64,000 bases of DNA from NCBI GenBank assembly GCA_000967895.1, contig FO203512.1, forward strand, positions 3,471,531 through 3,535,530. The letters are read 5' to 3'. Made by a program: the position numbers and the translations under genes. Under the pieces are notes generated by a model. That model was not told the DNA's origin. It did not search any database and saw only the letters and a list, made by a program, of their open reading frames with translations. The DNA comes from Oleispira antarctica RB-8 (GTDB lineage: Bacteria > Pseudomonadota > Gammaproteobacteria > Pseudomonadales > Oceanobacteraceae). Shown in pieces: positions 16,108-34,211 of this stretch. Each line of letters starts with the position of its first letter. Positions within the stretch are counted from its first letter, which is position 1.

Positions 16108-16156
16108 AAGACTCTTTGCTTAATACTCTTCAGCGACCCACTAACCCATCGCGCCT

Positions 16157-17310: not shown

Positions 17311-17386
17311 CTCCCCATAGTTTAACTGGATAAAACAGGGCCCTCCTAAGGCTTAGCTCCAGGTTCGAGTCCTGGTGGGGAGACCA
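17311..17386 (+). tRNA. tRNA-Arg (anticodon CCT)
   Basis: A complete cloverleaf of 76 nt including an encoded CCA. Acceptor CTCCCCA pairs with TGGGGAG, D stem GTTT with AAAC, and anticodon stem GGGCC with GGCTT (two G-U pairs). The loop CTCCTAA gives anticodon CCT; the T arm is CCAGG-TTCGAGT-CCTGG, with discriminator A. Its 3' end is the left boundary of the island; the same element, degenerate, reappears at 38037-38059. Confidence 0.93.
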
Positions 17387-17388: not shown

Positions 17389-17418
17389 TAATTCCTGCTG
17401 TGCTATCACACGAGAGAC

Positions 17419-17982
17419 TCACACAGCACCCCACTTCTTACTGGATTTTGACTGTCGCTTAATCTTTTTAGTTTTAATTAGTTTATTGATAACTTTTGAA
17501 AACTCTGATTTAGACAACCCAAGCGCTATCTGCACATCGTATGCCTTGGAAGGTTTTGCAAAATTTTCCAAAATTAAGTTTTCAAGATTAGACAGATTGT
17601 CCTTTTTCTTACCTCCATCATTTGGTTTCGTTTTATTATTTCCTAGCGGAAAAGTGGTGGTATTATTTATTCCAGCCAACGAACACTGAGAATTAAGAGC
17701 TTTCAGTAAGTCTTGATCTTTTGAACAAAAAATAAAATTAACGGCCCCTTTCTCTTTATTAGATAGCTGAGAAAGCAACCTTGTTAAATGAGCAATCATA
17801 TGGAAATCAGCCTGATTCTTCCCTGCTGGATAACCATTGACACAGTTATAAAGAAGCTTCTCGCATTCTAATTTAAAGCTCTCGTTATTGCTAAAAACAA
17901 ATACCTTGTCTAATACTGAAATATTTTTTTCTTCTAAAAAATCCATACCAACATTTTCAGCATCCACATAATATATTTTCAT
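17419..17982 (-). CDS. PIN-like (NYN-type) predicted ribonuclease with C-terminal winged helix
   Basis: A 187-aa protein from the ATG at 17982, chosen because it begins MKIYYVDAENVG, the classic N-terminal strand of PIN-like nucleases. The spaced acidic residues expected for metal binding are present: D7 and E9, D59 in GKNQADFHMI, and D89/D91 in CSKDQDLL. A lysine- and asparagine-rich linker (about 110-130) leads to a winged-helix domain (about 130-180, KAYDVQIALGLSKSEFSKVI) and a basic tail. RNA or DNA cleavage is inferred from the family. It is the last gene of the four-gene unknown cassette, 65 bp after the P-loop/PRTase gene and next to the tRNA. Confidence 0.68.
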   Translation of the reverse strand: MKIYYVDAENVGMDFLEEKNISVLDKVFVFSNNESFKLECEKLLYNCVNGYPAGKNQADFHMIAHLTRLLSQLSNKEKGAVNFIFCSKDQDLLKALNSQCSLAGINNTTTFPLGNNKTKPNDGGKKKDNLSNLENLILENFAKPSKAYDVQIALGLSKSEFSKVINKLIKTKKIKRQSKSSKKWGAV

Positions 17983-18071
17983 GTAATGTATCCCTAGTCG
18001 AAGCAACTAGCCGCTCTCCTAATTGCTTTTCCCTTATTTATGATCGTTGTGTCTTGTATTTTTAGCCAAAC

Positions 18072-19181
18072 TTAATCTGGCGTGCCATATAATCGAGCGC
18101 CCATATCAAAGATGCCTTTTGGACGATTTGTTTTATTTGAAAATCCTAAACAATGAAATTCAACAGTCTCTTTATAGCTTTCAATCATCTCTAAGGCTTT
18201 AATATTGATCGCTAAGCACACCACATGAATAGGCTGAACATACGTACTGGGCAGCGCCTCAATAATATTGCGAACCGTATTACCTGAATCTATTACAGAA
18301 TCTATGATAACTAGACCTTTAGATTCATCCATATCACAAACAATTTCAGCAGGCTCCTTACTCATGATAAATCTACCATTAAAACCTTCACAAAAGCCAT
18401 TGGCTATATAGTTACCTGACCTTGGTATGGATAGCACCTGAAAGTTAGAAAGATCAGCTCCCACTTTCTTCTCAAGTGGCTCCACTAGCTTAGAACCGAG
18501 TTCATAATGCTGTTTACGTAGCGATGATGGTGATAAATCACTCTCAAACTGGGCCTTATAAAGCTCTCTTAACTTAGTGTTTTTGCTCAAATAATAGTCA
18601 TTTAAATAATAAACATCATCAAAGCCTACTTCAAAAAATTGCCCAGCCAAGGAGATATTATTCAAAACCCCAAAGGCAATGGAATTCAGCAAGCAATAAT
18701 CTTCTGCCCCTTGAAACTCTTCCTCGGAAAGTTCATTCAAAACATCAATACTGCACTCACTTCTATTGCGCTTGCCCGACTGGTTATCGCTATCAATATT
18801 AGAAGCAACAACCTCATTAGGTGTATTTAAAAATATGAGCCCATCCGATACATCGTTATTCTCACTAGCCATTGCATTAACACGAAGGCCAGTATTAGAG
18901 TTCGTTACAAACATGTGCCCATCTAAAAACGTATACGAATTTTTGCTTTTATCTTGCAAAAACGAATGATGAAGACCATTAATTAAGTCCTCACGCTTTT
19001 CATGAGATATTGCATCTAGGCTTTTAGGGGTTTCTACTCCATTTTTTTTAATAAAATCCATAAAACGCCCAGAAGTCTGCGGTGCAGCGCCACCATCAAT
19101 ACACTCAGCCAGCTGCTTGCACACTGTTGTTTTACCAGCACCCGCCAAGCCCACGACATAATAAAGTTTATTGCTATCCAT
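18072..19181 (-). CDS. P-loop kinase-like / phosphoribosyltransferase fusion protein
   Basis: This 369-aa protein has two parts. The N-terminal half starts with a Walker A loop, GLAGAGKTT (residues 11-19), as in small-molecule kinases, with FLDGHMFV as a possible substrate strand. The C-terminal half (about 205-369) looks like a uracil-type phosphoribosyltransferase: LSIPRSGNYIANGF, the PRPP loop VIIDSVIDSGNTV (291-303), and the ending GIFDMGARLYGT, which mirrors uracil phosphoribosyltransferase C-termini. Its ATG overlaps the stop of the radical SAM gene by 8 bp. I know no named pathway with this pairing; a role in modifying or consuming nucleotides is inference. Confidence 0.7.
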   Translation of the reverse strand: MDSNKLYYVVGLAGAGKTTVCKQLAECIDGGAAPQTSGRFMDFIKKNGVETPKSLDAISHEKREDLINGLHHSFLQDKSKNSYTFLDGHMFVTNSNTGLRVNAMASENNDVSDGLIFLNTPNEVVASNIDSDNQSGKRNRSECSIDVLNELSEEEFQGAEDYCLLNSIAFGVLNNISLAGQFFEVGFDDVYYLNDYYLSKNTKLRELYKAQFESDLSPSSLRKQHYELGSKLVEPLEKKVGADLSNFQVLSIPRSGNYIANGFCEGFNGRFIMSKEPAEIVCDMDESKGLVIIDSVIDSGNTVRNIIEALPSTYVQPIHVVCLAINIKALEMIESYKETVEFHCLGFSNKTNRPKGIFDMGARLYGTPD

Positions 19182-19561
19182 GTTTAATCACCTTATCCAT
19201 ATACTTCTCAGCTTTTGCTACTATTTTTTCTATATCTGTACTCACTTGCTCAGCAACCGGTATTTGAGAGCAATTACCAACTGTGGCACAGGAATAACAC
19301 GCTTGTTTTGGTTTAGTAGAATTCAAGTATTCATCAATAGCAGACAATGAAGTTATCGACTCTATTAACAGCCCCTGCTCATCCCATTTCTTCTTCGCAA
19401 TACGAGAGCAAGAGAATAAGCGGCCACGCTCTAGGGTCACGTCATAACTTCTATAGAAGCAACTATTCCAATGATGCTCCGTTAACGCAGCATCGTTTTT
19501 GACTTCACTGAATAAATCATCCCAAGCACTTTTTCTGCGAAAGTCGATTTTATTGCGATAA

Positions 19562-19570
19562 CCAGAAGCT
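19562..19570. repeat. Target-site duplication, left copy
   Basis: CCAGAAGCT directly flanks the left end of the IS and is repeated exactly at 20940-20948. A 9-bp duplication is within the 8-9 bp range of the IS256 family. Confidence 0.9.
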
Positions 19571-20939
19571 GAGGTATGATCATTTCTGGTGTATCGGGTA
19601 AATAAGTAGCAGCGTATCCTGTTGATTGATCTTGGCGGATCAACAACCAAAAGGAGTACACTGCATGAATGATAATAATATTTCTCAGCTACATAAACCA
19701 GAGCCAACTGACTTATTACAACAAGTTTTAAAGCAAGGCGCGCAGCAGTTGTTAGCCCAAGCGATTGAAACCGAAGTTCAACAGCTTTTAGCCGATCATA
19801 AAGGGTTATTAACAGAAGATGGAAAGACTGGCCTGGTGCGCAATGGCTACCTTCCTGAGCGAACTATACAAACAGGCTTAGGAGATATTGATATCAAAGT
19901 TCCTAAGGTGCGTGACCGTACTGATAATGGCATAAAATTCAACAGCTCACTTGTACCGCCTTATCTAAAACGCAGCCAAAGTATTGAAGAGTTTTTACCG
20001 TGGCTTTATTTGCGCGGCATTTCAACGGGTGATTTTAGTGAGTCGCTAAAGCACCTATTGGGAGAGGAAGCGAAAGGCCTTTCGGCTGCTACAATCAGCC
20101 GGTTGAAAACAAGCTGGGAGGCTGATTTCACCCAGTGGCAGAAAAGAGATCTAAGTAAAAAGCGTTATGTTTATGTTTGGGCTGACGGCGTTTATTGCAA
20201 TGTAAGAATGGATGATAAAGTCTGCTTGCTGGTGATCATTGGCTCGGACGAGCTGGGAAATAAAGAGCTCATCGCCGTGAGTGATGGCTATCGAGAGTCA
20301 GAGGCAAGCTGGTCTGAAGTATTACTCGGCCTAAAGCAAAGAGGCTTAAGCATCGAGCCTAAAGTTGCTGTCGGAGACGGGGCCTTAGGCTTTTGGAAAG
20401 CGCTTTCTAAGTGCTGGCCAACGACACAAGGGCAGCGTTGCTGGGTTCATAAGACAGCGAATGTGCTCGCTAAGTTTCCTAAAGCGATGCAACCAAAAGT
20501 AAAAAGCGCACTGCATGAAATTTGGCAATCTGAAACAAAAGAAGAAGCCAATAAAAGCATGACAAATTGCGTTAAATTATTTGAAGCTAAGTACCCGAAA
20601 GCGATGAGGTGTCTTGAAAAAGATCGAGAAGCCTTGTTGGTATTTTATGATTTTCCTGCTGAGCATTGGGGCCATTTACGTACATCTAATCCGATAGAAT
20701 CTGTTTTTGCGACGGTGCGGTTAAGAACAACAAAAAGTAAAAATTGTGGCAGTCGAGTAACGACGTTAGCGATGGTATTGAAGTTAATGGAAACGGCTCA
20801 GAAACGGTGGCACAGATTACGAGGTTATAATTTATTAGCGGATGTGATTACGGGTGTGAAATTTCGTGATGGCATCAAACAAGAACAACAGGATCAGGAT
20901 GCTGCTTGATATTCTGTACACCAGATTTGACTATAGCTC
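19571..20939 (+). mobile_element. IS256-family insertion sequence (1369 bp, complete)
   Basis: Terminal inverted repeats of about 24 bp bound the element: left GAGGTATGATCATTTCTGGT and right (complement) GAGCTATAGTCAAATCTGGT, matching at 15 of these 20 positions and continuing GTA in both. The single transposase gene fills the interior and 9-bp direct repeats flank it. It is inserted in the minus-strand radical SAM gene with the transposase on the plus strand. Confidence 0.93.
19665..20909 (+). CDS. IS256-family transposase
   Basis: A 414-aa DDE transposase starting at the ATG at 19665, chosen for the AAAGGAG ribosome site 10 bp upstream; an in-frame upstream start at 19626 lacks one. The first acidic residue lies in VYVWADGVYCNV, the second in VAVGDGALGFWKAL, and the glutamate in HLRTSNPIESVFATVRLR, with the conserved CW in GQRCWVHKTANVL. 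These are the Transposase_mut (IS256/IS285) signatures. The gene appears intact, so the element may be active. Confidence 0.94.
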   Translation: MNDNNISQLHKPEPTDLLQQVLKQGAQQLLAQAIETEVQQLLADHKGLLTEDGKTGLVRNGYLPERTIQTGLGDIDIKVPKVRDRTDNGIKFNSSLVPPYLKRSQSIEEFLPWLYLRGISTGDFSESLKHLLGEEAKGLSAATISRLKTSWEADFTQWQKRDLSKKRYVYVWADGVYCNVRMDDKVCLLVIIGSDELGNKELIAVSDGYRESEASWSEVLLGLKQRGLSIEPKVAVGDGALGFWKALSKCWPTTQGQRCWVHKTANVLAKFPKAMQPKVKSALHEIWQSETKEEANKSMTNCVKLFEAKYPKAMRCLEKDREALLVFYDFPAEHWGHLRTSNPIESVFATVRLRTTKSKNCGSRVTTLAMVLKLMETAQKRWHRLRGYNLLADVITGVKFRDGIKQEQQDQDAA

Positions 20940-20948
20940 CCAGAAGCT
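20940..20948. repeat. Target-site duplication, right copy
   Basis: Exact copy of the 9-bp CCAGAAGCT at 19562-19570; together they mark the point where the radical SAM gene was cut. Confidence 0.9.
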
Positions 20949-21497
20949 TCTAAATATTGACGCCAATGGGTTTCAAAACTATCAGTGCAAATATAATCAC
21001 TGATAACCAAGCTATCTAATTGAAGTAAAACTTCTTTAGATACTCCTTGTGGATAAAGACCATTAGTCACTAACTCAATTTCATCAGAAATACCTATCTG
21101 TCGAATTTGAGTTATATATTCAGGCAATGATTTTGCTAAAGCGGCTTCACCACCCACCAGCACAATTTTCCCAATTGACAACCCCAAGCCCTTCAACTGA
21201 TAAAGCGCTGCAATATGCTGATCAATCCCCTCACCACTTACCGCCGCAATTTGGTTTGGCACATCAAAGCCACAACCACGGCAGGTCAAATTACATTTAT
21301 TGGTTACCGTAACTTCTAATTCTCGTATCTTTAAATTAGAAGTATCAGAAAAAGGATTCGCTTTTTTCTTTGTTCTTTTATCTGAGTTATTAGCTAAGCT
21401 ATTTATCATATTCATTGTTCTTTATCCGAATTTTAAGCACACTAATCCCTATCGAAAATTCAATATGAAAGGAATTAGTTACTTATGGTTTTATTTC

Positions 21498-23135
21498 TTA
21501 ATAGATACTTCTAAAGCCAGGAGTCTTATATCCAAAAAGAGCAAGACTTTCACTTAACTCGTTGATACAGATTTCAGATTCCTTATCACTGCCTAATAAA
21601 CCTTCAGCTTCCTCTAGAACGCTTTCAGCATCATCAAATACATATATATTTTTATAATACCCATCATTATCACTCTCGTACTGACTACTTTTACCTTCCT
21701 CATATTCATAGCCAAATACTAAAGCAAGCTTATTGCTAAATAATCGATAACAGCGAATATTTTTAGACTCTTCAGTATTTTCTTTTCCTTTAGCCTCACC
21801 AAATATGATTTCTCCACAAACTTGAACAGTTTCACTTTCAATATCGATATATTGATCATATGAATTATCGCGAGAACAAAGTGACTTACAGTATTCTGTA
21901 AAAACCGTACTCATATTAAGCTCAATCTCATGGCGACGACGGTCATACTCCCAACTTTCTAACTCTTCATACGCTAACGTAAACTTCAATTCACCATAAA
22001 GCTCCGCTGCCAGCTTTTTAAACTCACCGCCAATTGCATGCAAGTTCTCACTCAAAACAATCGAGTTTAAATCGTATTCTTTTGAATAACGCCCAAAAAC
22101 TTGTCGACTTTCTTTCTCTCTCAACCACTTAGCAGTTTCTTCAGCATACTTTAATTTATAGCTTTCACTGAGCGCAGACAATTCATCAGTAATTTGGTTA
22201 AACGCTACTTTGTAAGCATCATCCAAACCACCTTCAGAAACTTTCTCACCCAAAGCATCTTCAATAGCACTTATTAATTCACCCTCCTCATTTTTAGATT
22301 GTTCAGGCATAGGAAAGTGTCTATCAAGTATCTTGCCTCTCTTTTCTTCATCTAAATCAGCCAGCTCTGGATTACTTGCTAGATATTCACCACGACTTTC
22401 TTCCCATACTTCAATTTGTTGCTCAAAATCAACCTGAGCATCCTCATATTCAGATCTAAGCTGCTCAAGGTGATTTTTACGTAACAACAACTCTTCATTA
22501 GCGGGTTCATGCTGACTATGCAGCCCATCTAATGCGACACGCTCTTCAGCAAGAATACCTTCCAGTGCATAGCGCTGAATATTGCTTTCGTTAATGTTGC
22601 TCATACCACGCGCATTTTTTTCTAAATACCCTACCACTGCACGTATTTCCCAGTCATCTGGCAAACTAAGAGTTACACGCTTAACCACCTCCTCGATAAA
22701 GAATTCTTTACCTGGGGCTAATGGCGATATGTGATCAATCAACGACTCTAGCTGCTCTCCTGTGGCCTTGCTTTGCCCACCAAGCCACTGTGATATCTGA
22801 GACTGAGACACTTGGCACATCTCCGCCATATCAACTTGCTTAAAGCCTCTTAGCTCAGCTAATAAAAGCACCTCCCTTGTGTAAGGGTGTCTACCCGAGC
22901 TATTTGATGAGTATAGGATTTTATCCTCACCAAGCTCACTCACTCTCTGACTTAGCCATGCCTTGTTATCATTCTTATGGCTTTCTTTTTTCTTACCTTC
23001 TTGCTTCTTGTCCGCTTGTTCAGTGCCTTTAACTTTCTTACTGCCATCAACCTTTCCTGCTTCACCATCATTATTTTTTTGCTTATTTATCAATAACTTA
23101 CCTTCTTGACTCATCTGAATATCATTAGTTTCCAT
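21498..23135 (-). CDS. HTH / coiled-coil protein of unknown function
   Basis: Translation from the ATG at 23135, which has an AAGGG ribosome site 8 bp upstream, gives 545 aa. Residues 1-65 are a lysine/glutamate-rich low-complexity segment. A phage-repressor-like helix-turn-helix follows at about 90-125 (GFKQVDMAEMCQVSQSQISQ then WLGG). Residues about 190-370 are strongly charged and helical, probably coiled coil. The C-terminal 150 residues are acidic with a beta-rich stretch (LALVFGYEYEEG). I do not recognise the family. It is first in the minus-strand cassette with the radical SAM, P-loop/PRTase and PIN-like genes, and could be its DNA- or RNA-sensing part. Confidence 0.62.
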   Translation of the reverse strand: METNDIQMSQEGKLLINKQKNNDGEAGKVDGSKKVKGTEQADKKQEGKKKESHKNDNKAWLSQRVSELGEDKILYSSNSSGRHPYTREVLLLAELRGFKQVDMAEMCQVSQSQISQWLGGQSKATGEQLESLIDHISPLAPGKEFFIEEVVKRVTLSLPDDWEIRAVVGYLEKNARGMSNINESNIQRYALEGILAEERVALDGLHSQHEPANEELLLRKNHLEQLRSEYEDAQVDFEQQIEVWEESRGEYLASNPELADLDEEKRGKILDRHFPMPEQSKNEEGELISAIEDALGEKVSEGGLDDAYKVAFNQITDELSALSESYKLKYAEETAKWLREKESRQVFGRYSKEYDLNSIVLSENLHAIGGEFKKLAAELYGELKFTLAYEELESWEYDRRRHEIELNMSTVFTEYCKSLCSRDNSYDQYIDIESETVQVCGEIIFGEAKGKENTEESKNIRCYRLFSNKLALVFGYEYEEGKSSQYESDNDGYYKNIYVFDDAESVLEEAEGLLGSDKESEICINELSESLALFGYKTPGFRSIY

Positions 23136-23662: not shown

Positions 23663-24976
23663 TTAATACACCAATTCCCCCTTCATCAAATCAAACGGCA
23701 CCACAAACAGTTCAAAATCTTCCTCATAGGTAAACTTAGACAAAGGCTCTTTGAAATTCTCATTCATAGGGTAAATAAGCATCAACTTCTTATCACCCGT
23801 TAAATACTTATGCCCATACGCATACAGCTGATACATATCACTCTGTGAGATTCCGTAATTCTTAGCCCTACTATTACCGTTAATCAGCTTCCACTTGGTA
23901 TCCATTACCCACAAAGCCTTATCACCTTCTATAGCCATAAGGTCTGGACGTAAACGGAACATCGGTTTGTCATTATGATCATTGATTAGCGCCTTACCAC
24001 CGACTTGGGTTTTAAGTCTTGCACCTTCACCCAATGCCTCTGGCATGTTTTTATGCAAGCAATGAGCAACGTAGTCTTCAAATATGCGCTCCATAGGATA
24101 AAGCAACGATAAGGTATTAAACGCCCCTGCAGAAGCAGTAGGCCCCAAGCCAGACAACAGCAATTTCGTCCAAGCTAATACTTCTTGGTAATGCTGCATG
24201 CCTCTATCAATCTTTACTTTTTGAAAGTCGCCTGCAATATCATGACTCTTCGGTACGTCTTCAAAAACAAAACTAAGCTCTCGTGCCAAGCGCTGATTAC
24301 GGTTAGACCTAGCCAGCTTAGCGACTTTCACTAATGCCGTTTTAATTAATCGATTCGCAGGTCGGTTAACCTGATATTCAGAATGCTCTATATAAAAGCG
24401 TTCACTATGAATGCTATTTTTACGAATTTGCTGACTAACTAATAACCGCCCCTTCAAGAATTTTGAATTCTTCTGAACTTTCACATAATCTGAGCGTATA
24501 CCACGCTTAACCAGCTGATTAGCCAATGCCAAGAATTGGCTAATATACACTTCCAGCAAAGGCATCTTGGCATCGTGAATATCTGCCCTACCCGCATCTT
24601 TAAAAGGGCTATCTCTTAAAGTACGCAACATTTTCAACAAGGCGCTACGACAGTACTCTTCTTCATTACCACTATTAGGATTATAAATCTTAGGCAACAC
24701 TTCAATTTGAGTACCACAAGCTGTTTGAAGCACCCCGACATAATTACGCACTTGTAATGCAGGCTTACGACGATAGATAGCAGGTTTTAAAAATGGTTGA
24801 ATATCGGCATCGCGGGCGCTATCGCTATATTGCAGCGCCATCAAGCTTTCATACGCTTTATTAGGCAAAACAACTACATTAGTCGCGAGCTTGTCACTTT
24901 TCGTACTCTCTGAAAATCCATGAGCCTCGCTCACTAAAAAGCCAAACTCACGAATACAGTATGGCTTATTCACCAT
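23663..24976 (-). CDS. mcrC: McrC-family protein (5-methylcytosine restriction, nuclease subunit)
   Basis: The 437-aa protein starts at the ATG at 24976, overlapping the mcrB stop by 11 bp. McrC pairs with the GTPase McrB to cut modified DNA. The N-terminal half holds the McrC signature region (LQVRNYVGVLQT, CGTQIEVLPKI), and the C-terminal half holds a PD-(D/E)xK nuclease core: LRPDLMAIEGDKALWVMDTKWK gives the D…(D)xK pattern (split here as LRPDLMAIEG and WVMDTKWK). YGISQSDMYQLYAYGHKY follows, as is usual. No truncation seen. Confidence 0.88.
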   Translation of the reverse strand: MVNKPYCIREFGFLVSEAHGFSESTKSDKLATNVVVLPNKAYESLMALQYSDSARDADIQPFLKPAIYRRKPALQVRNYVGVLQTACGTQIEVLPKIYNPNSGNEEEYCRSALLKMLRTLRDSPFKDAGRADIHDAKMPLLEVYISQFLALANQLVKRGIRSDYVKVQKNSKFLKGRLLVSQQIRKNSIHSERFYIEHSEYQVNRPANRLIKTALVKVAKLARSNRNQRLARELSFVFEDVPKSHDIAGDFQKVKIDRGMQHYQEVLAWTKLLLSGLGPTASAGAFNTLSLLYPMERIFEDYVAHCLHKNMPEALGEGARLKTQVGGKALINDHNDKPMFRLRPDLMAIEGDKALWVMDTKWKLINGNSRAKNYGISQSDMYQLYAYGHKYLTGDKKLMLIYPMNENFKEPLSKFTYEEDFELFVVPFDLMKGELVY

Positions 24977-27293
24977 AAATACCTTTATAAGCTTCAATCT
25001 CTTCTAGTGCTGCATCATTACGCTGATAAGTAACAATCTCATCCAACCTTAGATTCTCTGCTTCTTCATCATTACCAAATAAATCACCAATAGAATTATT
25101 CTTAACCATAGAGATAAAAGCCAAGTTTTGATCTGTTTTCTGATTATCACCCAATACCAAACGGATTTTTTCCCAGTCTTCAAAGAAATACTCTTCTAAC
25201 AAGGGTAAGATTTTATTCTTGAAAATACCTTGAAGCATATTAAAACGTTTATCTTCCGCCTCATCTTTTAACGGCATAAAGAAAGCGTGACCTAGAGTAT
25301 GCTCACGATCATAAAGCACTTCTATTCGCTTATTAATCACTTCAAGCATCTTAGAAATATTAATACCATCAACGTCAATACCAGCCAATTTATTTAAATT
25401 TGGCATCATTTCAATAAAATCAAAACGGCGGCGTAATGCGGTATCCATTAACGCTAGTGATCTATCTGCAGTATTCATGGTGCCGATGATATGAAGATTA
25501 TTGGGAACAGAAAAAGATTCTTTAGAATAGGGAAGCTCTACAGAAAGCGCTTCTTCTTGACCTGCTCTTTTGCTAGGTTCAATTAAAGTAATTAAATCAC
25601 CAAATATACTGGAGATATTACCCCGGTTAATCTCATCAATGATGAGGACATAATTATCTTTATCAGCAGTCTGTGAATAATTATATTCTTCTAGCTTAAG
25701 CTCGCGTTTAAAAAACCCTAGAATACTTTTAACATATGATGCGTTATATAGATCTTTAACTTCTGGGTTCTGATACAACCTTCTAATATTATCAATAGAG
25801 ACTGGATAACCCCTTGCTAGATCATCATTTTTTGAGCCGTTTGGAAATACTCTAAAGGTTGAATTTCCATGATATTCAACCTTATATCGCCTACCCTGTA
25901 CGGTGGTTAGCTGAAGATCAGGCTCTGCATCTATTTTATCTTTAAATTGCTGCAAAGCCTTATCAAAACTATTAGATGCCTTTGCGCCTATACCAGCAAC
26001 CTGACATATTCTTTTAAAGATACCTGGCTCCACTGAATAACTGATTTGACCAGCATCAGTAGTAGCTCTTAAACCTTCAATGAACTCTTCATAGCTAAAG
26101 CTTTGATGGAAAGTTATAAAGTGAATGCGTTGATCTTTAACTAGCTCATCATAACGTTTCTTTATTTCAGTACGAGTGCCTACATAACTTGGATCAGCTG
26201 CATTAACTGCTCGGTTGATAGTATTGAATGTCTTTCCAGTTCCTGGGGGGCCATAAAGAATAGTATTTAAAGATTGATTAAGATTTTTATTCTTTTTGAT
26301 CACTGTTATCCCTTCTGCACCCAACTCTTCACTAAAGACATTTTCTACCTCACCTAGCAAGTGCTCTTTTAAAATGTAGATAAAGGTATTTAGGAGATAA
26401 GTATCTTCTTCCTCAAAACCTCGAAGTTTAATAGTCTTAACTACTCGGCTATTTAATTCAGCCCAATTTCCTCTGGGATCAATATTCGGACCGAACCCAC
26501 TTTTATTCCAGTGGCCAGCGAAATCTCTTAACTGCTCATGATTGAGAATTGTGCAGTAACTTGACGGAGAGCAAGCGCAAAAATAGCGATTTATTACACC
26601 ATGTTTGATTGTATTAAACTTACCTTCTTTTTTAGCAATAGAAGCCCAACTTTTTACATCATCATACTCATCAGAAGTTGGAGAGCTATAAATACCCATA
26701 CTTATTTTTGGTAATTCTGCTTTTAAAGCAAAGTACTCTTCATCACTAAAAAAACCAGGCTTAACGCTACTAATTTCATTTTGCTGAGAACGCCAGTAAT
26801 TTTCTAAAAAATCTTCAGAAGAAAAATTAAATTCATCAACATTGATGGATTCTAAATATTCACATTGGATCCTATAACCATCAATCCATTCCTGTGCAGG
26901 ATTCTTTTTATAGAATTCAAAATACTTAGATAGTGTACTATCTCTATCCGCAAGGATTTTAATCGTTAAATCATTATCTCTAGCCCAAACCACAAATGCG
27001 TCTATATTGCCGATACCCCATTGACTCCAGACAAGGAATGTTACCCCATTAGAGTCGCTGACTGGGTCAGTTTTAAAATATCTTTTTTTCGTATCAGGGT
27101 TGGAATTTAGTTTTTCTTTATAATCTAATTTTTTAATTATCACATTGTCGTTGAAGCCTTTTGGCTCAAGAGATGCTTTGAGACTTTCGAAGGTTTTACC
27201 TTCTATTACGACTAGGTGTTTAATAACGGCTAAAACCAAAGGTCCTTTACCAAGTTTTTCACCATTGAATTCGTATAACGTTCTATCAGCCAT
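24966..27293 (-). CDS. mcrB: McrB-family AAA+ GTPase with an unfamiliar N-terminal domain
   Basis: A 775-aa protein whose C-terminal half is a McrB AAA+ motor: Walker A YGPPGTGKT (about 347-355), FHQSFSYEEFIEGLRA, Walker B LIIDEINRGNISSIFGDLI, and the McrB signature MNTADRSLALMDTALRRRF. The first 330 residues should read the target DNA. They do not look like the E. coli McrB methylcytosine reader; they include FLVWSQWGIGNIDAFVVWAR and a Cys-containing RYFCACSPSSYCTIL segment. GTP-driven translocation with McrC is family knowledge; the recognised modification is unknown. It is 36 bp downstream of ptuB. Confidence 0.88.
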   Translation of the reverse strand: MADRTLYEFNGEKLGKGPLVLAVIKHLVVIEGKTFESLKASLEPKGFNDNVIIKKLDYKEKLNSNPDTKKRYFKTDPVSDSNGVTFLVWSQWGIGNIDAFVVWARDNDLTIKILADRDSTLSKYFEFYKKNPAQEWIDGYRIQCEYLESINVDEFNFSSEDFLENYWRSQQNEISSVKPGFFSDEEYFALKAELPKISMGIYSSPTSDEYDDVKSWASIAKKEGKFNTIKHGVINRYFCACSPSSYCTILNHEQLRDFAGHWNKSGFGPNIDPRGNWAELNSRVVKTIKLRGFEEEDTYLLNTFIYILKEHLLGEVENVFSEELGAEGITVIKKNKNLNQSLNTILYGPPGTGKTFNTINRAVNAADPSYVGTRTEIKKRYDELVKDQRIHFITFHQSFSYEEFIEGLRATTDAGQISYSVEPGIFKRICQVAGIGAKASNSFDKALQQFKDKIDAEPDLQLTTVQGRRYKVEYHGNSTFRVFPNGSKNDDLARGYPVSIDNIRRLYQNPEVKDLYNASYVKSILGFFKRELKLEEYNYSQTADKDNYVLIIDEINRGNISSIFGDLITLIEPSKRAGQEEALSVELPYSKESFSVPNNLHIIGTMNTADRSLALMDTALRRRFDFIEMMPNLNKLAGIDVDGINISKMLEVINKRIEVLYDREHTLGHAFFMPLKDEAEDKRFNMLQGIFKNKILPLLEEYFFEDWEKIRLVLGDNQKTDQNLAFISMVKNNSIGDLFGNDEEAENLRLDEIVTYQRNDAALEEIEAYKGIYGE

Positions 27294-27329
27294 TAAGTAA
27301 TACCCTTTTTATGATAGGCAGATTCATAT

Positions 27330-28100
27330 TTAGCCAATATAACCAATATCCGTTAATTGGTGCTCAGCAGCGCTTCCCAGATAATCACGCAATGACGAAA
27401 AGAATGCTGGCCAGTGATCTTGATCGTTTTTCCTTAACAATCCTCTAGCAAGCCTAGATCGCGCATCCTCTATTTTCATACCTTCCGCAATTAATTCCTT
27501 GAGGGAGTCATTTACATTATCAAGCGCAGCTTTTCTTAATCGTCGTAAGCGGTCACTATCAAGTCGTAAATTATCAATCGTTGCTTGTGCTTTAACTTTA
27601 TCCACACCTACTTGATCGCAATTATCGTTATTGAGCGAAATTGCGCCATCTGTTCGATTAAAGGAAAATAAAATAGGCGTATGTGGAATATTTAACGGAT
27701 TCAGAATCACATCATCCCAATTCTCATTTCCCTTAGGTACATCACATGAATGATCAGGACTACTGTGGCGCTCTCCCGCCTCAACTACGTTAGCTTGACT
27801 TCCTCCATGGCAACAGCCTAATAGATTCTGCCAATCTAAATGCCAGTTATGCACGGTCGAATAGTCAGATTTAGGGTGAAAATGTTCAACTCTAAAGTCT
27901 GCCTTTCCATTTTCATCAGCATTCTTTAAATTAATTTCACAATAGGCACAAAGACCGCCTTGATCGCCTTTTATGTGATTCTGAGCCTGCTTTCTTCTAT
28001 TAGTTTTATCTACAAACTTCTCCCACTTTGCTGTTGGGCGTAACCGCCTATATGCTTCGAGCTTGGTAGGAGCATCTGTCTTATCAATTTTCTTCATCAA
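27330..28100 (-). CDS. ptuB: PtuB-like HNH endonuclease (TIGR02646 type)
   Basis: The 256-aa protein holds an HNH fold: zinc-binding CAYC (C51, C54), the catalytic region RVEHFHPKS (H73, H75) and a second zinc site NLLGCCHGG (C96, C97). This matches the HNH partner of Septu and of the retron-associated ATPase/HNH pair. Its start overlaps the end of ptuA by 17 bp. The ATPase probably senses infection and the HNH protein cleaves nucleic acid. No reverse transcriptase is present, so this is Septu-like, not a retron. Confidence 0.85.
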   Translation of the reverse strand: MMKKIDKTDAPTKLEAYRRLRPTAKWEKFVDKTNRRKQAQNHIKGDQGGLCAYCEINLKNADENGKADFRVEHFHPKSDYSTVHNWHLDWQNLLGCCHGGSQANVVEAGERHSSPDHSCDVPKGNENWDDVILNPLNIPHTPILFSFNRTDGAISLNNDNCDQVGVDKVKAQATIDNLRLDSDRLRRLRKAALDNVNDSLKELIAEGMKIEDARSRLARGLLRKNDQDHWPAFFSSLRDYLGSAAEHQLTDIGYIG

Positions 28101-29391
28101 GACGATCCATTTCTTTCAAACGAATATCGATATCTAATCGAGCTAACTCAGGTTCATACTCAGAACCCCAGGCATCAAGCTTCTTTCGTAAGCTCAGTGC
28201 TTCTTGGGTATCCCATAAGTCCTTAGAAACCAATTCTTGGTATTGAATTAAGTTTTGTACAATTGGGAGGTCTTTTACGCGTGGAGATTCAAGCCCTAAA
28301 ACTTCCATTAAAACCTGTTGCGATTCAGCACCTTCAGAGAACGAGACTGATTTAATACTTGGCTTCTCACCCATCCAATCAATCACTCTCAAGCATTTAG
28401 GCTTAACGGATGAAATTACCTGCGGGCTATGTGTAGATACTATAAATTGAAGGTTTTTGAACGTTCGCATTAAATCTAGCAATATCGTTTGCTGCCAGCC
28501 AGGATGTAAATGCAAATCTACTTCATCAATCAATACAATACCAGAAGCTAATAAAGGATCATCCATCTCTGGATTGGCTTCAGCCATACGGCCTGCAATA
28601 TCCATAACCATAGCTAAGGTCGTTCGATAGCCGTCACTGAGTTGTTCAATACGAAGTTTCTTCGTCTGCTCACCTACTTTCCAATCGACCTGAATACCAG
28701 CAGGCTTAGCGCCTTTGGGATTTGAAAAATCAGGAAGCATTGCCGTAATCGCTTTGCGTATTGCACGAAGCTCTGGAATGTCTATATCAAATGATCGCAC
28801 TTCTTGCTGGCGGTCACTCTCTGTTTTTTCTAAAGAATAAAAATATTCAACAAAGCTCTTAAAATTTGCTCTGCTTTCTAGTCCCCCAGTAAACGCATCA
28901 AAACGCCTAAATATCTTATTAAAGCCTTTTGTACGCTGTGGCATTTCAAATACACCACGACCCGTTCCATAATAAATAAAAATAGGAAGCTCGTAAGTTT
29001 CACCTTCGTTATCTGCATCAATAAATTGATCCACATAATTATTTAAGTCTTTAATACCCTTCGCTTCAGGTATCGCTTCAGCTGTTTTCTTAGTCTGATC
29101 TCGTTTTTCTGTTCGATCCCACTTAATACCTTCAAATGTTTCGCAGGCTATGCGCATATAAGGTGGTTTCTTACCATTAGGTAATAACTGAAAATCAGTT
29201 TCCTTCGGGTTTATTCCAGCTACTTTGGGAACACGAGTTAAGAATGACCCAAGCAAGGTTGCTATAGCATCTAAAATACTGGACTTGCCAGCACCGTTTC
29301 TAGCAACCAATACCGTTAGTTGTTCATCAAATTCAATCTCTAGGTCAGAGAAACGACGAAAGTGATTAAGTTTTAATCGTTTTATTTTCAT
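28084..29391 (-). CDS. ptuA: PtuA-like SMC/ABC-type ATPase of a Septu-like system
   Basis: This 435-aa ATPase has Walker A ARNGAGKSS (residues 30-38) after the typical KRLKLNHFRRFSDLEI start, an ABC signature-like LSDGYRTTLAMVMDIAGR, Walker B GIVLIDEVDLHLHPGWQQ and a switch histidine in FIVSTHSPQVI. The architecture matches PtuA and related AAA_21/AAA_15 anti-phage ATPases. The start codon overlaps the hsdS stop (ATGA), and the gene is followed with overlap by ptuB. It therefore appears translated together with a type I restriction system. Confidence 0.86.
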   Translation of the reverse strand: MKIKRLKLNHFRRFSDLEIEFDEQLTVLVARNGAGKSSILDAIATLLGSFLTRVPKVAGINPKETDFQLLPNGKKPPYMRIACETFEGIKWDRTEKRDQTKKTAEAIPEAKGIKDLNNYVDQFIDADNEGETYELPIFIYYGTGRGVFEMPQRTKGFNKIFRRFDAFTGGLESRANFKSFVEYFYSLEKTESDRQQEVRSFDIDIPELRAIRKAITAMLPDFSNPKGAKPAGIQVDWKVGEQTKKLRIEQLSDGYRTTLAMVMDIAGRMAEANPEMDDPLLASGIVLIDEVDLHLHPGWQQTILLDLMRTFKNLQFIVSTHSPQVISSVKPKCLRVIDWMGEKPSIKSVSFSEGAESQQVLMEVLGLESPRVKDLPIVQNLIQYQELVSKDLWDTQEALSLRKKLDAWGSEYEPELARLDIDIRLKEMDRLDEEN

Positions 29392-30974
29392 TTGTTAGCC
29401 ACCTTCTTTTGAATCGTTTTAGGCTTTTTCTTTATGACTAGTTTATCACGCTCTTCTGTAATCTTGGCCAGCAATGCCTCAGCACTATTGTCGCCCGTAA
29501 TCAAATCAGGGTTCTCTGCGCGCCATTGTGCGGTGAGTTCACCACGAAAAGCTTTTGCCAATATGGATTGAGTAAGGTTATTCACACGCATCTGTGCGTT
29601 TTTTACTTGTTGTTCGATTTGATCGGCGAAGGCAAAGAGTTCTTCTACGCGGCGGACGATTTCGCTTTGTTCTTCTATCGGCGGTAGCTGGATAGGATAT
29701 GAGGCTAAGCTTTTTGCAGATAGATTCGGTTGTGCAGAACCATTATCATAATTTTTGATTAACTTTTTAGACTCAGGACCAACCAAAAAATAGTAGGTAA
29801 AATCACGATTTAAACTTCTACCCGCCCTTACAATCACTAAGGATGAAGCTATTGCACCAATATCGTAATTAACACGAGCAGTCTTACCCATTGTTGCTCC
29901 ACGTAAACAGTAAACAAGATCACTTGGTTCAACCTTACCGCCCCCTAAAGAATTATATTTTTCTTCTGATATATAATTCATTCTTTCATCAGATAATGTC
30001 CCATTGGGATCTATATGACCTGTATTTATAAAGGGTATCCCTTTTTCCACATACTCAGATTTGTTTGGGTAGTTCTTCCCTCTATCTCCGTTTATTAACT
30101 TAGAAACAGAGCCTAATCGCGTCCAAATCCATCCGTCTATAGTTGTAGAATAAAGATCATCCGCATCTAACCTCGGTAACTTTGAATCATGGGAAACCTC
30201 TGGGGTCTCACACTCATTCCCCCCCCGCCATTCTTCTGTTAGCTTGCCACTCACGGCGGCGGCTAATACGCTTTGGCGGAAGGTTTTTAGGATTTTTGGA
30301 ATGGCGTCGAGGCGGGTTTTGATGTTATCCACTTGTGCCAGTAGGGTATCTAGGGTTTGGGCAATGACGGTTTGTTCGGCTAGAGGGGGGAGGGATATTT
30401 CATGCACCTTAATCAAGGCTTGAGAAATATTTGGTTGAGCTCCACCTTTTCCCTTTGCGATAAAAGCATCTTTTTCATTTTTCAAAAAATAATATAAATA
30501 ATCTGTTGAAGTGACATTTTCAATTGGATTCCCAACGGCACAGGCTTGGTTTGTTGTTGCATCAATTCCTAAAATCGATGTTTTACCGATTGTTGCTCCA
30601 TACATAGCCAACGCAACAGAACCTTTTGGAAAGTACTTAGCACTTGAATTTTTTACAGCTTCTTCTGTTATAAACTCCGTCGCGGCCGTAACATACCTTG
30701 GCCCTAAGTCTCCGGTTTTAACCCAAGGTATCTCTCCACCATAGTAATCAGCATTTTTTCTTGATGGTGTACCGCCTGACCCCCACATAGCAATATCTGC
30801 AAGAGTTGCTCTAACCCACCCTTCCGGCAGTCTATCATTAGCTTCACTATTTTCTGGAGTCGCGAGCAGGCTCGCTTCTTCATTATCTCCCAATGAATTT
30901 TCTAAACCGCCCAATACTTGTTCGGTATTTTCTAGAGTGGTGTTGAGACTTTGCTGTGTTTTTTTCACGGTCAT
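29388..30974 (-). CDS. hsdS: Type I restriction-modification specificity subunit HsdS
   Basis: A 528-aa subunit with two target-recognition domains. The first starts at about residue 50 (LPEGWVRATLADIAMWGSGG) and ends with LPPLAEQTVIAQTLDTLLAQVDNI. The second starts near 275 (DGWIWTRLGSVSKLINGDRG) and ends with LPPIEEQSEIVRRVEELFAF. The helical repeats after each (TLDTLLAQVDNIKTRL and VEELFAFADQIEQQV) set the spacing between the two half-sites of the target. Dual domains imply a bipartite target sequence, which cannot be read from the protein. It is 112 bp downstream of hsdM. Confidence 0.92.
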   Translation of the reverse strand: MTVKKTQQSLNTTLENTEQVLGGLENSLGDNEEASLLATPENSEANDRLPEGWVRATLADIAMWGSGGTPSRKNADYYGGEIPWVKTGDLGPRYVTAATEFITEEAVKNSSAKYFPKGSVALAMYGATIGKTSILGIDATTNQACAVGNPIENVTSTDYLYYFLKNEKDAFIAKGKGGAQPNISQALIKVHEISLPPLAEQTVIAQTLDTLLAQVDNIKTRLDAIPKILKTFRQSVLAAAVSGKLTEEWRGGNECETPEVSHDSKLPRLDADDLYSTTIDGWIWTRLGSVSKLINGDRGKNYPNKSEYVEKGIPFINTGHIDPNGTLSDERMNYISEEKYNSLGGGKVEPSDLVYCLRGATMGKTARVNYDIGAIASSLVIVRAGRSLNRDFTYYFLVGPESKKLIKNYDNGSAQPNLSAKSLASYPIQLPPIEEQSEIVRRVEELFAFADQIEQQVKNAQMRVNNLTQSILAKAFRGELTAQWRAENPDLITGDNSAEALLAKITEERDKLVIKKKPKTIQKKVANK

Positions 30975-31001
30975 TAGCTGATGCTCCGTGAGTGCTTATA
31001 T

Positions 31002-31072
31002 TTACCCTTCGACCGCTTCGCGCTCAGGGCGAACGGTAATTTTGATGGAGTAGCCTGCAAGCAGCCTGCTAC
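31002..31072. repeat. REP-like extragenic palindromic sequences between hsdM and hsdS
   Basis: Two adjacent imperfect hairpins fill the gap: 31004-31036 (CCCTTCGACC… to CAGGGCGAACGG, reminiscent of the widespread REP ending in GCGAACGG) and 31050-31072 (GTAGC…GCTAC with internal GCAGGC copies). REP elements at this spot may protect or attenuate the hsdM-hsdS transcript. Identification is by resemblance only. Confidence 0.45.
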
Positions 31073-31086
31073 AAAAAAAGTATTCA

Positions 31087-32718
31087 TTATTCTGTGCCCT
31101 CTGCTGCTAGGCCCAGTGATTGTGCCAATAAATATTTTTGTACTTTGGCTTGGTCGCTAGCGCCTAATGCGGTCATTAAACTGTCTAGCTCGCGCAGGGC
31201 TTCTGTTAATTCCGACATGGCTTCTGCGGCTAATACATCGGGCTCGGGCAGATCGGCAGCGTCTATGCTGTCTTTGTCTTTTAGCCAGCTTATGTCGAGG
31301 GAGTCACCTTTGGTGTCGCGAATGTAGTCGCGGGTGAAGCATTTCCACCTTGTGTTATCGGCGTTCTTTTCTATCAGAAGTTCAGGGCTGTTTTCTTTAC
31401 TCTCTTCCGTAAAGCTCCACTCTTCTTCGGTGCGTTTGCTAGTACCGTCGGCTTTTTTACCAAAGACTTTTTCAAACGGTTTTAAGTGACTTTCACCAAA
31501 CGGCGTGCGTTTACCAAAGCTAGGCATGTTGGTGCGTAGATCGTATACCCATGTGTGGGTGGTGCAGTTTTCTTCTTGCTTTGGTTTTTTGGCGGTGCCT
31601 TTACTAAAAAACAGTACGTTGGTTTTTACCCCTGCCGCGTAAAAGATACCGGTAGGTAGTCTTAGAATGGTATGCAGGTTGCATTTGTTCATTAGGTCGC
31701 GACGAATGTCGGTGCCTTTACCCGCTTCGAATAATACGTTATCGGGTAGTACCACGGCGGCGCGGCCACCGGGTTTTAAGTTGCGGTAGATATGTTGTAA
31801 AAATGCCAGTTGTTTGTTGCTGGTTTCAAACGTTAGGTCGTCACGTGTGATCGATGCTTCGCCGCCTTTGGATGTTCCAAACGGTGGATTAGCTAAAATC
31901 ACGTCGGCTGGTTTTAAACTTTTACCTGCATCGCCAAGGGCGTTACCTAAATGAATAACGCCTTCCGATTCATCAGTACTGTCGCCTTCGATGCCGTGTA
32001 ATAGACAGTTCATTAGCGATAATCGGCGCGTACCAGGTACCAGTTCGATACCAACAAACGCATTATTTTTTTGAAAGTTTTGTTCTTTTTCGGTTAGGTC
32101 AAAGAGGTCGTCGGTTTCACTTTTTATGTAGCTATCGGCAGCGATTAAGAAGCCTGCGGTGCCTGCCGCCGGGTCTTGTATAACTTCACCGGCTTGCGGT
32201 TTTACGCAGCGCACGATGCTGTCGATGAGTGCGCGTGGGGTAAAGTATTGACCAGCGCCCGATTTAGTTTCGGTGGCGTTTTTTTCTAATAACCCTTCGT
32301 ATAAATCCCCTAGTCCATCGGCTTCGATGTTGAACCAGTCGATTTGGTCGAGGCTTTTGATCATTTGCTTTAGGTGGCGCGGTTCACGTAAGCGGGTTTG
32401 TGCATCGGCATAGATAGCTTGTATGAGCTTGTCTTCGTGAACTTTATTGCCGTTCGCATCGGTACCCGTTGATAGGCTTAATAGAATACGTTTGTAGTCG
32501 TTTAGTAATGTAATGCCGTCTTTGTCGTTAATGTCTTCCCAGCGGCAACCTTCTGGCAATGGGTGACGGTTGAACAGACCTGCTTCGGTTTTTTCGTGAA
32601 CCATTTTTAAGAACAGTAATAAAACCAGCTCGGTGACGTAGTCGCTGTAGTTGATGCCGTCGTCACGCAATACGTCACATAGGTTCCAGAGTTTTTGTAC
32701 GATGTTGTTATTGGTCAT
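31087..32718 (-). CDS. hsdM: Type I restriction-modification DNA methyltransferase HsdM
   Basis: The 543-aa adenine N6-methyltransferase has an N-terminal four-helix domain (IVQKLWNLCDVLRDDGINYS), SAM motif QDPAAGTAGFLIAADSYI, and catalytic ANPPFG (about residue 283), the gamma-class N6-adenine signature. A GQYFTPRALIDSIV segment precedes the SAM site as in EcoKI-type HsdM. With HsdS it forms the methylase, and with HsdR the restriction complex. Confidence 0.94.
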   Translation of the reverse strand: MTNNNIVQKLWNLCDVLRDDGINYSDYVTELVLLLFLKMVHEKTEAGLFNRHPLPEGCRWEDINDKDGITLLNDYKRILLSLSTGTDANGNKVHEDKLIQAIYADAQTRLREPRHLKQMIKSLDQIDWFNIEADGLGDLYEGLLEKNATETKSGAGQYFTPRALIDSIVRCVKPQAGEVIQDPAAGTAGFLIAADSYIKSETDDLFDLTEKEQNFQKNNAFVGIELVPGTRRLSLMNCLLHGIEGDSTDESEGVIHLGNALGDAGKSLKPADVILANPPFGTSKGGEASITRDDLTFETSNKQLAFLQHIYRNLKPGGRAAVVLPDNVLFEAGKGTDIRRDLMNKCNLHTILRLPTGIFYAAGVKTNVLFFSKGTAKKPKQEENCTTHTWVYDLRTNMPSFGKRTPFGESHLKPFEKVFGKKADGTSKRTEEEWSFTEESKENSPELLIEKNADNTRWKCFTRDYIRDTKGDSLDISWLKDKDSIDAADLPEPDVLAAEAMSELTEALRELDSLMTALGASDQAKVQKYLLAQSLGLAAEGTE

Positions 32719-32776
32719 GGTGTCTTCTTAAATATGTTTTAAAGTAAATTTTGAATCTGTTTTTTTAAATTTGGTT

Positions 32777-33901: not shown

Positions 33902-34211
33902 TTCTCTACTCCTGCCAACTTCTTATATATCAAGAGTTAGCCTATATAATACACAAACTCTAATTTTGGCTTAATATAGTCCTATAAGGCCTAGATTTAT
34001 AGTCTTGTGTATTAAATAATTACTTTTGTCATATGGAAAGCTCTTTGTGTATGGTGGCTCATACGCTATTTGTGTTGTGTATCGTTATTCTAACAATCTA
34101 ATACATAACGTTGTTTCTGTATGATGTGTCATACAGAAACTCTGTTGTGTATTGCAAGAGTAAAAATACCATACAAAAGATCACCACATGTCTATTGCGT
34201 CGACATGTGTG
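33902..34211. promoter_or_regulatory. 310-bp non-coding region before the Fic gene with paired GTATG-N6-CATAC operators
   Basis: GTATG-N6-CATAC occurs at 34049-34064 and 34119-34134, exactly 70 bp apart. The second is part of a longer perfect 12-bp stem (34113-34124 with 34129-34140, loop TGTG). TTGTGTAT recurs at about 34014, 34045, 34074 and 34144. Near the hsdR end, CACATGTC and GACATGTG (34186-34209) form a hairpin that may end hsdR transcription. The arrangement suggests a self-regulated promoter for fic-hsdM-hsdS. Confidence 0.6.

What the first reader, a model, noticed from the sequence alone, without database searches (positions are those of the whole stretch)
17419..23135. Unnamed four-gene cassette: HTH/coiled-coil protein, radical SAM protein, P-loop/phosphoribosyltransferase fusion and PIN-like nuclease
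Seen: four minus-strand genes between a defence cluster and the tRNA att site, with the radical SAM stop and P-loop/PRTase start overlapping by 8 bp. The fusion carries Walker A GLAGAGKTT and PRPP loop VIIDSVIDSGNTV plus a uracil-PRTase-like C-terminus. The last gene has PIN-like acidic residues and a winged helix. I know no named defence or modification system with this set. Inference: a nucleotide-modifying or nucleotide-depleting module with a sensor (HTH/coiled-coil) and an RNase effector, placed in a defence island. Alternative: unrelated genes gathered at an integration hotspot.
Basis: partly seen in the sequence, partly recalled or inferred. Interest (0 to 1): 0.85.

Follow-up and report, generated by a model that had tools for sequence, protein, structure and literature searches.

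The report
Two-gene nucleotide-making module, IS-broken here
Inside a cluster of bacterial anti-virus genes lies an undescribed pair of enzyme genes that probably make an unusual nucleotide; in this genome a jumping gene has broken one of the pair, and the two neighbours counted with it do not look like lasting partners.

Summary
The genes are there, but the four-gene cassette does not look like one unit. The radical SAM gene is split by a 1369-bp IS256-family element (19571-20939, 9-bp target duplication). The genome holds seven identical copies of it, one of them here, and an eighth at 95%; the insertion is recent and the gene presumably dead.

A relative from another genus of the family (G985) shows the core: an intact radical SAM gene (53% and 58.5% identical to the two window pieces) overlaps by 4 nt a 41% identical kinase-PRTase fusion gene, 47 nt after a type I HsdR gene, with no HTH/coiled-coil or PIN relative detected. 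Genome G570 has an unfused analogue: PIN-ankyrin, radical SAM/SPASM, kinase-HAD and UPRTase genes before two GmrSD genes.

HTH/coiled-coil relatives sit on four plasmids, three with an adjoining NYN gene. PIN relatives stand apart. The island (17387-38059) holds McrBC, Septu, type I RM and Fic genes.

Most likely: the PRTase joins a uracil-like base to PRPP, the kinase phosphorylates it, and the radical SAM enzyme remodels base or sugar, giving a defence nucleotide. Chemistry and defence role are inferred. The pair is rare, so the sample is small.

The parts
17311..17386 (+). tRNA-Arg (CCT), integration site of the island
   Evidence: ARAGORN; Rfam
17419..17982 (-). PIN7-like domain plus C-terminal winged helix, 187 aa from ATG 17982 (195 aa from TTG 18006); accessory, not part of the core pair
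   Evidence: Pfam PF18475 E 1.7e-5 on the 195-aa form, 25.8 bits against cut-off 34; relatives elsewhere lie apart; model pLDDT 64.8
18072..19181 (-). core gene 2: P-loop kinase (AAA_17/adenylate-kinase-like) fused to a UPRTase-like phosphoribosyltransferase, 369 aa
19174..19570 (-). core gene 1, 3' piece of the broken radical SAM gene: twitch-like cysteines, 8-bp overlap with the fusion start
19562..19570 (.). target-site duplication, copy 1 (CCAGAAGCT)
19571..20939 (+). IS256-family insertion sequence interrupting the radical SAM gene (transposase 19626-20909)
20940..20948 (.). target-site duplication, copy 2
20940..21415 (-). core gene 1, 5' piece of the broken radical SAM gene with CX3CX2C (CNLTCRGC)
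21498..23135 (-). HTH/coiled-coil protein (GTG alternative start 23141); separate gene
23663..37784 (-). rest of the defence island: McrC (PF10117 E 9.5e-100), an McrB-like AAA_5 gene, PtuB and PtuA (Septu), HsdS, HsdM, Fic, HsdR
38037..38059 (+). imperfect repeat of the tRNA-Arg 3' end, probable far boundary of the island

Best explanation
The functional unit is a pair of translationally coupled genes: a small radical SAM enzyme with a twitch-like auxiliary cluster domain, and a kinase-phosphoribosyltransferase fusion. The PRTase half joins a uracil-like base to PRPP, giving a nucleoside monophosphate. The kinase half phosphorylates it. The radical SAM enzyme remodels the base, nucleotide or sugar. 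The product is an unusual nucleotide that blocks an invader's nucleic acid synthesis, as viperin's product does, or signals to neighbouring effectors. Shown here: the pairing, the conserved catalytic motifs and the place near restriction genes. Inferred: the auxiliary cluster, the order of reactions, the product, and the defence role. In this genome the pair is presumably inactive because an insertion sequence splits the radical SAM gene.
For: G985 keeps both genes overlapping (4 nt), with different neighbours from the window. The identities are 53% over 155 aa and 58.5% over 123 aa for the radical SAM pieces and 41% for the fusion. CX3CX2C, the stretch CFYRSYDVTLERGRLFSCSRIAKK and CYSC are shared by both radical SAM proteins. 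GxxGxGK, LDGH, the DSVxDxGxT PRPP loop and the GxxDMGARLYGT tail are kept in the window and G985 fusions. G, D, G, RL and GT of that tail are invariant in an alignment of three PRTases with two annotated uracil PRTases. The PRTase profile matches UPRTase structures best (E 2.6e-5). G570 has the same kinds of activity as separate tightly packed genes, its PRTase a clear UPRTase (PF14681 E 1.1e-26). The kinase-HAD (E <= 1e-5) and PIN-ankyrin (E <= 1e-20) proteins occur in G570 only, 1 of 37 family genomes in each search. Restriction genes lie within 2.3 kb in all three loci. The sparse, island-bound distribution is typical of defence genes.
Against: No activity or phage test exists. The intact homologous pair was seen in one genome only. 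The radical SAM scores for substrate-assigned families are superfamily-level (MoaA 37.9 bits against a cut-off of 284). The G570 radical SAM belongs to another subfamily, nearest to peptide- and protein-modifying enzymes, so a shared product is not secure. PF14681 is below its cut-off in the window protein (21.5 against 27) and just at it in G985 (27.0). NCBIfam lists no family for the G985 fusion at E <= 0.001. The MAG with the 79% identical fusion shows only a 31% radical SAM match, though its contig breaks inside the fusion gene. In the window the nearest restriction gene is 2.2 kb away, with the HTH/coiled-coil gene between. The structure model of the fusion failed (pLDDT 43).
Confidence: 0.42

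Rival explanations
1. The fusion is a toxin-like effector (PRTase effector with a kinase switch) that consumes PRPP or alters nucleotide pools on infection, and the radical SAM enzyme controls or activates it.
For: Weak matches to conflict-system PRTases: PF24390 PRTase-CE, 26.1 bits against cut-off 27, and PADLOC PRTase_III-A, E 7.6e-7. Passages of PMC12548924 call the PRTase the usual effector of type III retrons.
Against: The C-terminal tail is closer to enzymes making UMP. In G985 neither PRTase-CE at E <= 0.01 nor a PADLOC model at 1e-5 is reported for the fusion. No reverse transcriptase was reported for the island proteins scanned with Pfam.
Confidence: 0.18
2. The pair modifies bases in nucleic acid or in the precursor pool (a host tag that neighbouring restriction enzymes respect or attack), in the way that phage thymidine hypermodification joins a kinase with a radical SAM enzyme (recalled).
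For: Weak match of the G985 kinase to 5-hmdU DNA kinase PF18748 (E 0.0045). Restriction genes lie close in all three loci, including modification-dependent types (McrBC, GmrSD).
Against: PF18748 is far below its cut-off (17 against 27 bits). A PRTase acts on a free base, not on DNA (established chemistry of the family). No base-transfer enzyme was recognised beside the pair.
Confidence: 0.14
3. The pair is an accessory salvage or cofactor pathway unrelated to defence that travels in islands.
For: All domains have metabolic relatives (MoaA, adenylate kinase, UPRTase).
Against: Very sparse: the fusion query matches 1 of 369 class genomes, 3 of 293 order genomes (own, a PRTase-only and a kinase-only relative) and 4 of 55 near relatives, one of them a 27-residue scrap. 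Restriction genes are close in the three loci read. No NCBIfam model reaches its cut-off for the window or G985 proteins among those listed.
Confidence: 0.16
4. The four genes are one system, with the HTH/coiled-coil protein as sensor and the PIN protein as RNase effector.
For: Same strand, gaps of 82 and 89 bp and no terminator-like site on that strand in either gap in a simple scan. The PIN gene follows the fusion gene in the Oleispira MAG too. G570 also has a PIN gene at the head of its set. HTH/coiled-coil relatives pair with another PIN-like (NYN) gene on plasmids.
Against: Neither gene is detected in the G985 locus. The G570 PIN gene is a different family (PIN_4 with ankyrin repeats). 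PIN relatives elsewhere lie apart. The profile comparison of PIN7 proteins with one NYN protein gives probability 4.4%, E 0.0093, over 63 columns only.
Confidence: 0.1

Closest known systems
Prokaryotic viperins (pVip), some with nucleotide kinases
   Same: Small radical SAM protein next to a nucleotide-kinase-like domain in a defence setting; general match over about the first 150 residues
   Different: Far below the viperin cut-off (33.7 and 23.8 bits against 180); twitch-like cysteines; a PRTase is fused to the kinase, which I do not recall for viperins
Ter (tellurium-resistance) biosynthetic module: PRTases plus HAD phosphoesterases proposed to make a nucleoside-like signal
   Same: PRTase-based nucleotide synthesis proposed for defence; G570 even has a HAD domain (passages in PMC7824862 and PMC5512222)
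   Different: No Ter family reported for the island proteins scanned; I recall no radical SAM enzyme in Ter, and the term is absent from the main text of both papers; the Ter paper itself was not held
Type III-A retron PRTase effector / PRTase-CE (PF24390)
   Same: PRTase domain in a conflict setting, weak profile match
   Different: Below the Pfam cut-off; no reverse transcriptase reported nearby; kinase fusion and radical SAM partner
Uracil phosphoribosyltransferase (PF14681)
   Same: GxxDxGxRLxGT tail and RxG motif; G570 PRTase is a clear member
   Different: PRPP loop DSVIDSGNT instead of DPMLATG; shortened base loop; fused kinase
Phage 5-hmdU DNA kinases (PF18748) of thymidine hypermodification
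   Same: P-loop kinase in pathways that, as recalled, also use radical SAM enzymes
   Different: Sub-threshold match only

Membership tests
Prokaryotic viperin | Score above NCBIfam NF038283 cut-off (180 bits) | tested here: not met
   33.7 bits for the window 5' piece; 23.8 for intact G985
Prokaryotic viperin | Converts CTP (or UTP/GTP) to the ddh form | not testable with these tools
   needs enzymology
Radical SAM superfamily | CX3CX2C motif and family profile | tested here: met
   CNLTCRGC / CNLTCVGC; PF04055 E 1.5e-4 and 5.9e-6, both below the Pfam bit cut-off (22.4 and 27.0 against 29.5)
SPASM (two auxiliary clusters) | CX9-15GX4C then CX2CX5CX3C | tested here: not met
   window has CX2CX5C without the fourth cysteine; G985 has CX2C only; four shared auxiliary cysteines suggest a twitch-type domain
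UPRTase (PF14681) | Score above 27 bits | tested here: inconclusive
   window 21.5, G985 27.0, G570 94.1
PRTase-CE (PF24390) | Score above 27 bits | tested here: not met
   window 26.1; not reported for G985 at E <= 0.01
Type III-A retron | Reverse transcriptase next to the PRTase | tested here: not met
   none reported by Pfam for the cassette proteins, the ten proteins of 27333-43373 and the two of 23666-27293; retron non-coding RNA was sought only with Rfam at gathering threshold in 17200-24000
Ter system | TerB/C/D or TelA genes nearby | tested here: not met
   none reported for the proteins scanned; other window genes were not scanned
5-hmdU DNA kinase (PF18748) | Score above 27 bits | tested here: not met
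   17 bits in G985; not listed for the window at E <= 1
Anti-phage defence system | Protects against phage | not testable with these tools
   only guilt by association with restriction genes

The most novel reading that the evidence does not exclude
Probability: 0.27. Interest if true: 0.85.

Novelty: new variant of a known kind. Interest (0 to 1): 0.57.

Why it matters
Viperins show that a radical SAM enzyme can make antiviral nucleotides. A compact pair that also carries its own PRTase and kinase would widen that chemistry and could yield a new nucleotide analogue. The pair is small and an intact version is known by sequence, so it is directly testable. The result also corrects the four-gene claim: the HTH/coiled-coil and PIN genes should be studied in their own settings.

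Tried and rejected
Four-gene unit: set aside after G985. HTH/coiled-coil as plasmid replication initiator: considered because two carriers have ParA/ParB genes next to it, set aside because p09022A has a separate annotated replication initiation protein; no such gene is annotated on p-ED653, so the point is open there. NYN gene as an obligate partner: NYN relatives were found on 356 plasmid records; of four opened, three showed no HTH/coiled-coil-like gene just before it in the annotation and one had no annotation. Radical SAM as viperin or MoaA: only superfamily-level scores. Viral-contig hits for the radical SAM piece (L029-L031): L029 is another radical SAM protein with 30% identity over a short stretch, L031 a match against the reading direction of a long tail-like gene; L030, reported with the same match as L029, was not opened. 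G502: kinase relative with an ASCH gene and a gene weakly like acetyltransferases, query matched only in the kinase part. G980: a 27-residue match in a 69-aa frame, not counted as a relative. My first reading of contig L018 as Mu-like was wrong: Pfam shows a tail sheath, a small terminase of the Phage_term_smal family and a DNA methylase.

Searches without a relative: the fusion in 72,556 plasmid and 50,697 phage records and in IMG/VR, and by DNA in E. coli genomes; PRTase profile in IMG/VR; G570 kinase-HAD in plasmids and IMG/VR; HTH/coiled-coil in IMG/VR and phages; PIN in phages; G570 radical SAM in IMG/VR. Own genome only: HTH/coiled-coil profile in 274 class genomes, PRTase profile in 339 phylum genomes. 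The one genome-contig scan gave one locus, L004. Genome samples overlap and are one genome per species. The G570 PRTase found only annotated upp genes and one unannotated place on 9 plasmid records. The window radical SAM 5' piece found one plasmid record, a MoaA gene at 32%.

Structures: fusion model useless (pLDDT 43.0). PIN model pLDDT 64.8; of 1230 fold matches none has E <= 0.001, and the 50 rows shown are mostly winged-helix proteins.

Literature: ten searches., which join radical SAM with phosphoribosyltransferase or PRTase and other terms, listed no paper. So 'not in print' means not in this open-access library under those terms.
Full report
What is in the sequence. The 8-bp overlap of radical SAM stop and fusion start is exact.

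A transposase gene of the Mutator/IS256 type (PF00872, E 6e-62) lies inside it on the plus strand. The element is 1369 bp, 19571-20939, with imperfect terminal repeats and a perfect 9-bp target duplication, CCAGAAGCT, at 19562-19570 and 20940-20948. The best-matching IS256-family elements on plasmids align over the same limits within two bases. The own genome holds 8 matches, 7 of them 100% identical over 1369 bases including this one, and one at 95%. So the insertion is recent, and the gene, though conserved on both sides, presumably cannot give a whole protein in this genome.

The island. A tRNA-Arg(CCT) gene lies at 17311-17386. An imperfect 23-bp repeat of its 3' end (TTCGGGCCCTGGTGGGGACCATT) lies at 38037-38059, in the gap after HsdR. 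A score this high was reached by 3 of 100 shuffled queries over the rest of the window, and an exact-pattern scan with up to 3 mismatches did not find it, so the repeat alone is modest evidence; its position just past the last defence gene makes it the likely far boundary. Between the two lie the four genes above, McrC (PF10117, E 9.5e-100), an McrB-like AAA_5 gene, PtuB and PtuA of Septu, HsdS, HsdM, Fic and HsdR. No integrase was recognised among the proteins scanned. In a MAG named uncultured Oleispira (L004) a 79% identical fusion gene and the PIN gene sit at a tRNA-Arg(CCT) gene too. There a remnant of the tRNA 3' end follows the PIN gene, and then comes a PD-(D/E)XK gene before the whole tRNA. 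This fits stepwise additions at one integration site.

Who belongs with whom. A search of 55 near relatives matched the fusion in 4 of 55: own; G978, which appears to be the same MAG as L004 since the match coordinates agree; G985; and G980, a 27-residue scrap that I do not count. G985, another genus of the same family, weighs most. Its fusion gene (361 aa, 41% identical) overlaps by 4 nt an intact 286-aa radical SAM gene. The window's two pieces match that protein at 53% (residues 5-159) and 58.5% (residues 159-281). The gene before it, 47 nt away, is HsdR of a type I RM operon (HsdM, HsdS, a DUF4268 protein, a 177-aa protein without a Pfam match, HsdR). The two HsdR proteins differ: their C-terminal parts match different Pfam models (T1RH-like_C; EcoEI_R_C) and their best PADLOC models differ (PDLC03040; PDLC03042). 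tblastn of the window HTH/coiled-coil and PIN proteins finds nothing significant in the 19.5-kb G985 locus (best E 0.65 and 0.97). The two-gene pair therefore kept together while its neighbours differ.

A looser analogue is in G570, from another family of the same order. PIN_4-ankyrin, radical SAM/SPASM, P-loop kinase-HAD and UPRTase genes follow each other with gaps of 2, -1 and 0 nt. Two GmrSD-type genes follow. The PRTase aligns with the window's at 27% (E 2e-11) and the kinase at 23% (E 2e-6), pairwise E-values. The radical SAM protein is only superfamily-related to the window's and is nearest to sulfatase-maturase and ranthipeptide-type enzymes. Kinase-HAD (E <= 1e-5) and PIN-ankyrin (E <= 1e-20) each occur in 1 of 37 genomes of that family, G570 itself. 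G502 carries a related kinase beside an ASCH gene and a weakly acetyltransferase-like gene.

The pair is rare. Own genome only, in 369 class genomes for the fusion. 3 of 293 order genomes for the fusion: own, a PRTase-only hit in G570, a kinase-only hit in G502. 2 of 293 for the PRTase profile: own and G570. 1 of 339 phylum genomes for the same profile, own. 1 of 293 for the radical SAM 5' piece at E <= 1e-12, own. These samples overlap, and G985 was in none of the earlier ones by its handle. The MAG of L004 gave only a 31% radical SAM match, but its contig begins at codon 44 of the fusion, so it neither supports nor refutes the pairing.

The two companions. Relatives of the HTH/coiled-coil protein covering at least 85% of it were found on 4 of 72,556 plasmid records and in no other of 274 class genomes. 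In 3 of the 4 an NYN gene follows directly on the same strand, by 8, 27 and 8 nt as annotated. In the fourth, from Photobacterium, no NYN gene is annotated. PIN relatives on four Aliivibrio and Moritella plasmids have no radical SAM or PRTase gene annotated nearby, though many neighbours are 'hypothetical'. Two viral contigs also carry one; only L018 was opened, and there the gene lies between a DNA methylase gene and phage tail genes with a tail sheath and a small terminase.

How it probably works. Radical SAM: CX3CX2C is present. The C-terminal part has CX11GX4C and CX2C in both relatives, four shared auxiliary cysteines and less than a full SPASM set, so a twitch-like domain with one extra cluster is my inference. 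Fusion: adenylate-kinase-like P-loop domain (AAA_17) and a PRTase whose tail keeps G, D, G, RL and GT in common with two annotated uracil PRTases; its profile finds UPRTase structures first. From the known chemistry of these families I infer base + PRPP to NMP, then phosphorylation, with the radical SAM enzyme acting on base, nucleotide or product. The order is open. Restriction genes close by in all three places (47 nt, 170 nt and 2.2 kb), the sparse distribution and the integration site point to defence, but no experiment does.

Comparison with the known. It works like a viperin with kinase, or like the biosynthetic part of Ter, in making a nucleotide for conflict. It is not a member of either by the tests run here. 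The Ter comparison rests on passages of PMC7824862 and PMC5512222, the retron PRTase on passages of PMC12548924; what I say of viperin chemistry and thymidine hypermodification is recalled. Literature searches joining radical SAM with PRTase and defence, kinase, operon or restriction terms listed no paper in the open-access library.

Verdict. A real but smaller thing than claimed: a rare two-gene module, undescribed in the sources searched, with good evidence of coupling, a plausible nucleotide-making role, unproven function, and a presumably inactivated copy in this window.

Noticed in passing
L009-L011 (plasmids NZ_CP065208.1, NZ_CP045342.1, NC_010114.1): HTH/coiled-coil gene followed on the same strand by an NYN gene (OST-HTH/LOTUS match in both of the two scanned) on three Vibrio plasmids, two of them with ParA/ParB genes on the opposite strand just upstream: a possible two-gene system of its own.
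   Followed up: partly
L012:5878-11335 (plasmid NZ_CP065043.1): The fourth HTH/coiled-coil relative lies about 2.4 kb from a gene annotated as anti-phage dCTP deaminase, with an IS3 transposase gene between.
   Followed up: no
L018, L019 and plasmid loci L013-L016; window 17419-17982: PIN7-like protein with winged helix as a cargo gene on phage-like contigs (tail sheath and small terminase genes on L018) and on marine plasmids, once near dndBCD genes (L014).
   Followed up: partly
L005:6551-13917 (G570): PIN_4-ankyrin / radical SAM-SPASM / kinase-HAD / UPRTase operon followed by two GmrSD-type genes; the kinase-HAD layout recalls polynucleotide kinase-phosphatase enzymes (recalled, not tested).
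   Followed up: partly
L006:7141-9086 (G502): Kinase of the same family beside an ASCH gene and a weakly acetyltransferase-like gene, perhaps another nucleotide-related cassette.
   Followed up: no
L004:1636-2584: tRNA-Arg 3' remnant after the PIN gene, then a PD-(D/E)XK gene, then the whole tRNA: trace of a second insertion at the same site. The remnant resembles the window's tRNA end (score 41) more than the MAG's own tRNA (14).
   Followed up: partly
window 19571-20939 and seven other places in the own genome: Expanding IS256-family element: 7 identical copies and one at 95%.
   Followed up: yes
window 14742-17179: Another radical SAM protein (340 aa, DUF3641) with a DUF2064 gene and a gene that reads like a glycosyltransferase (no Pfam match at 0.001) next to it, on the chromosomal side of the tRNA; counterparts lie beside the tRNA in the Oleispira MAG too. 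Not part of the island.
   Followed up: partly
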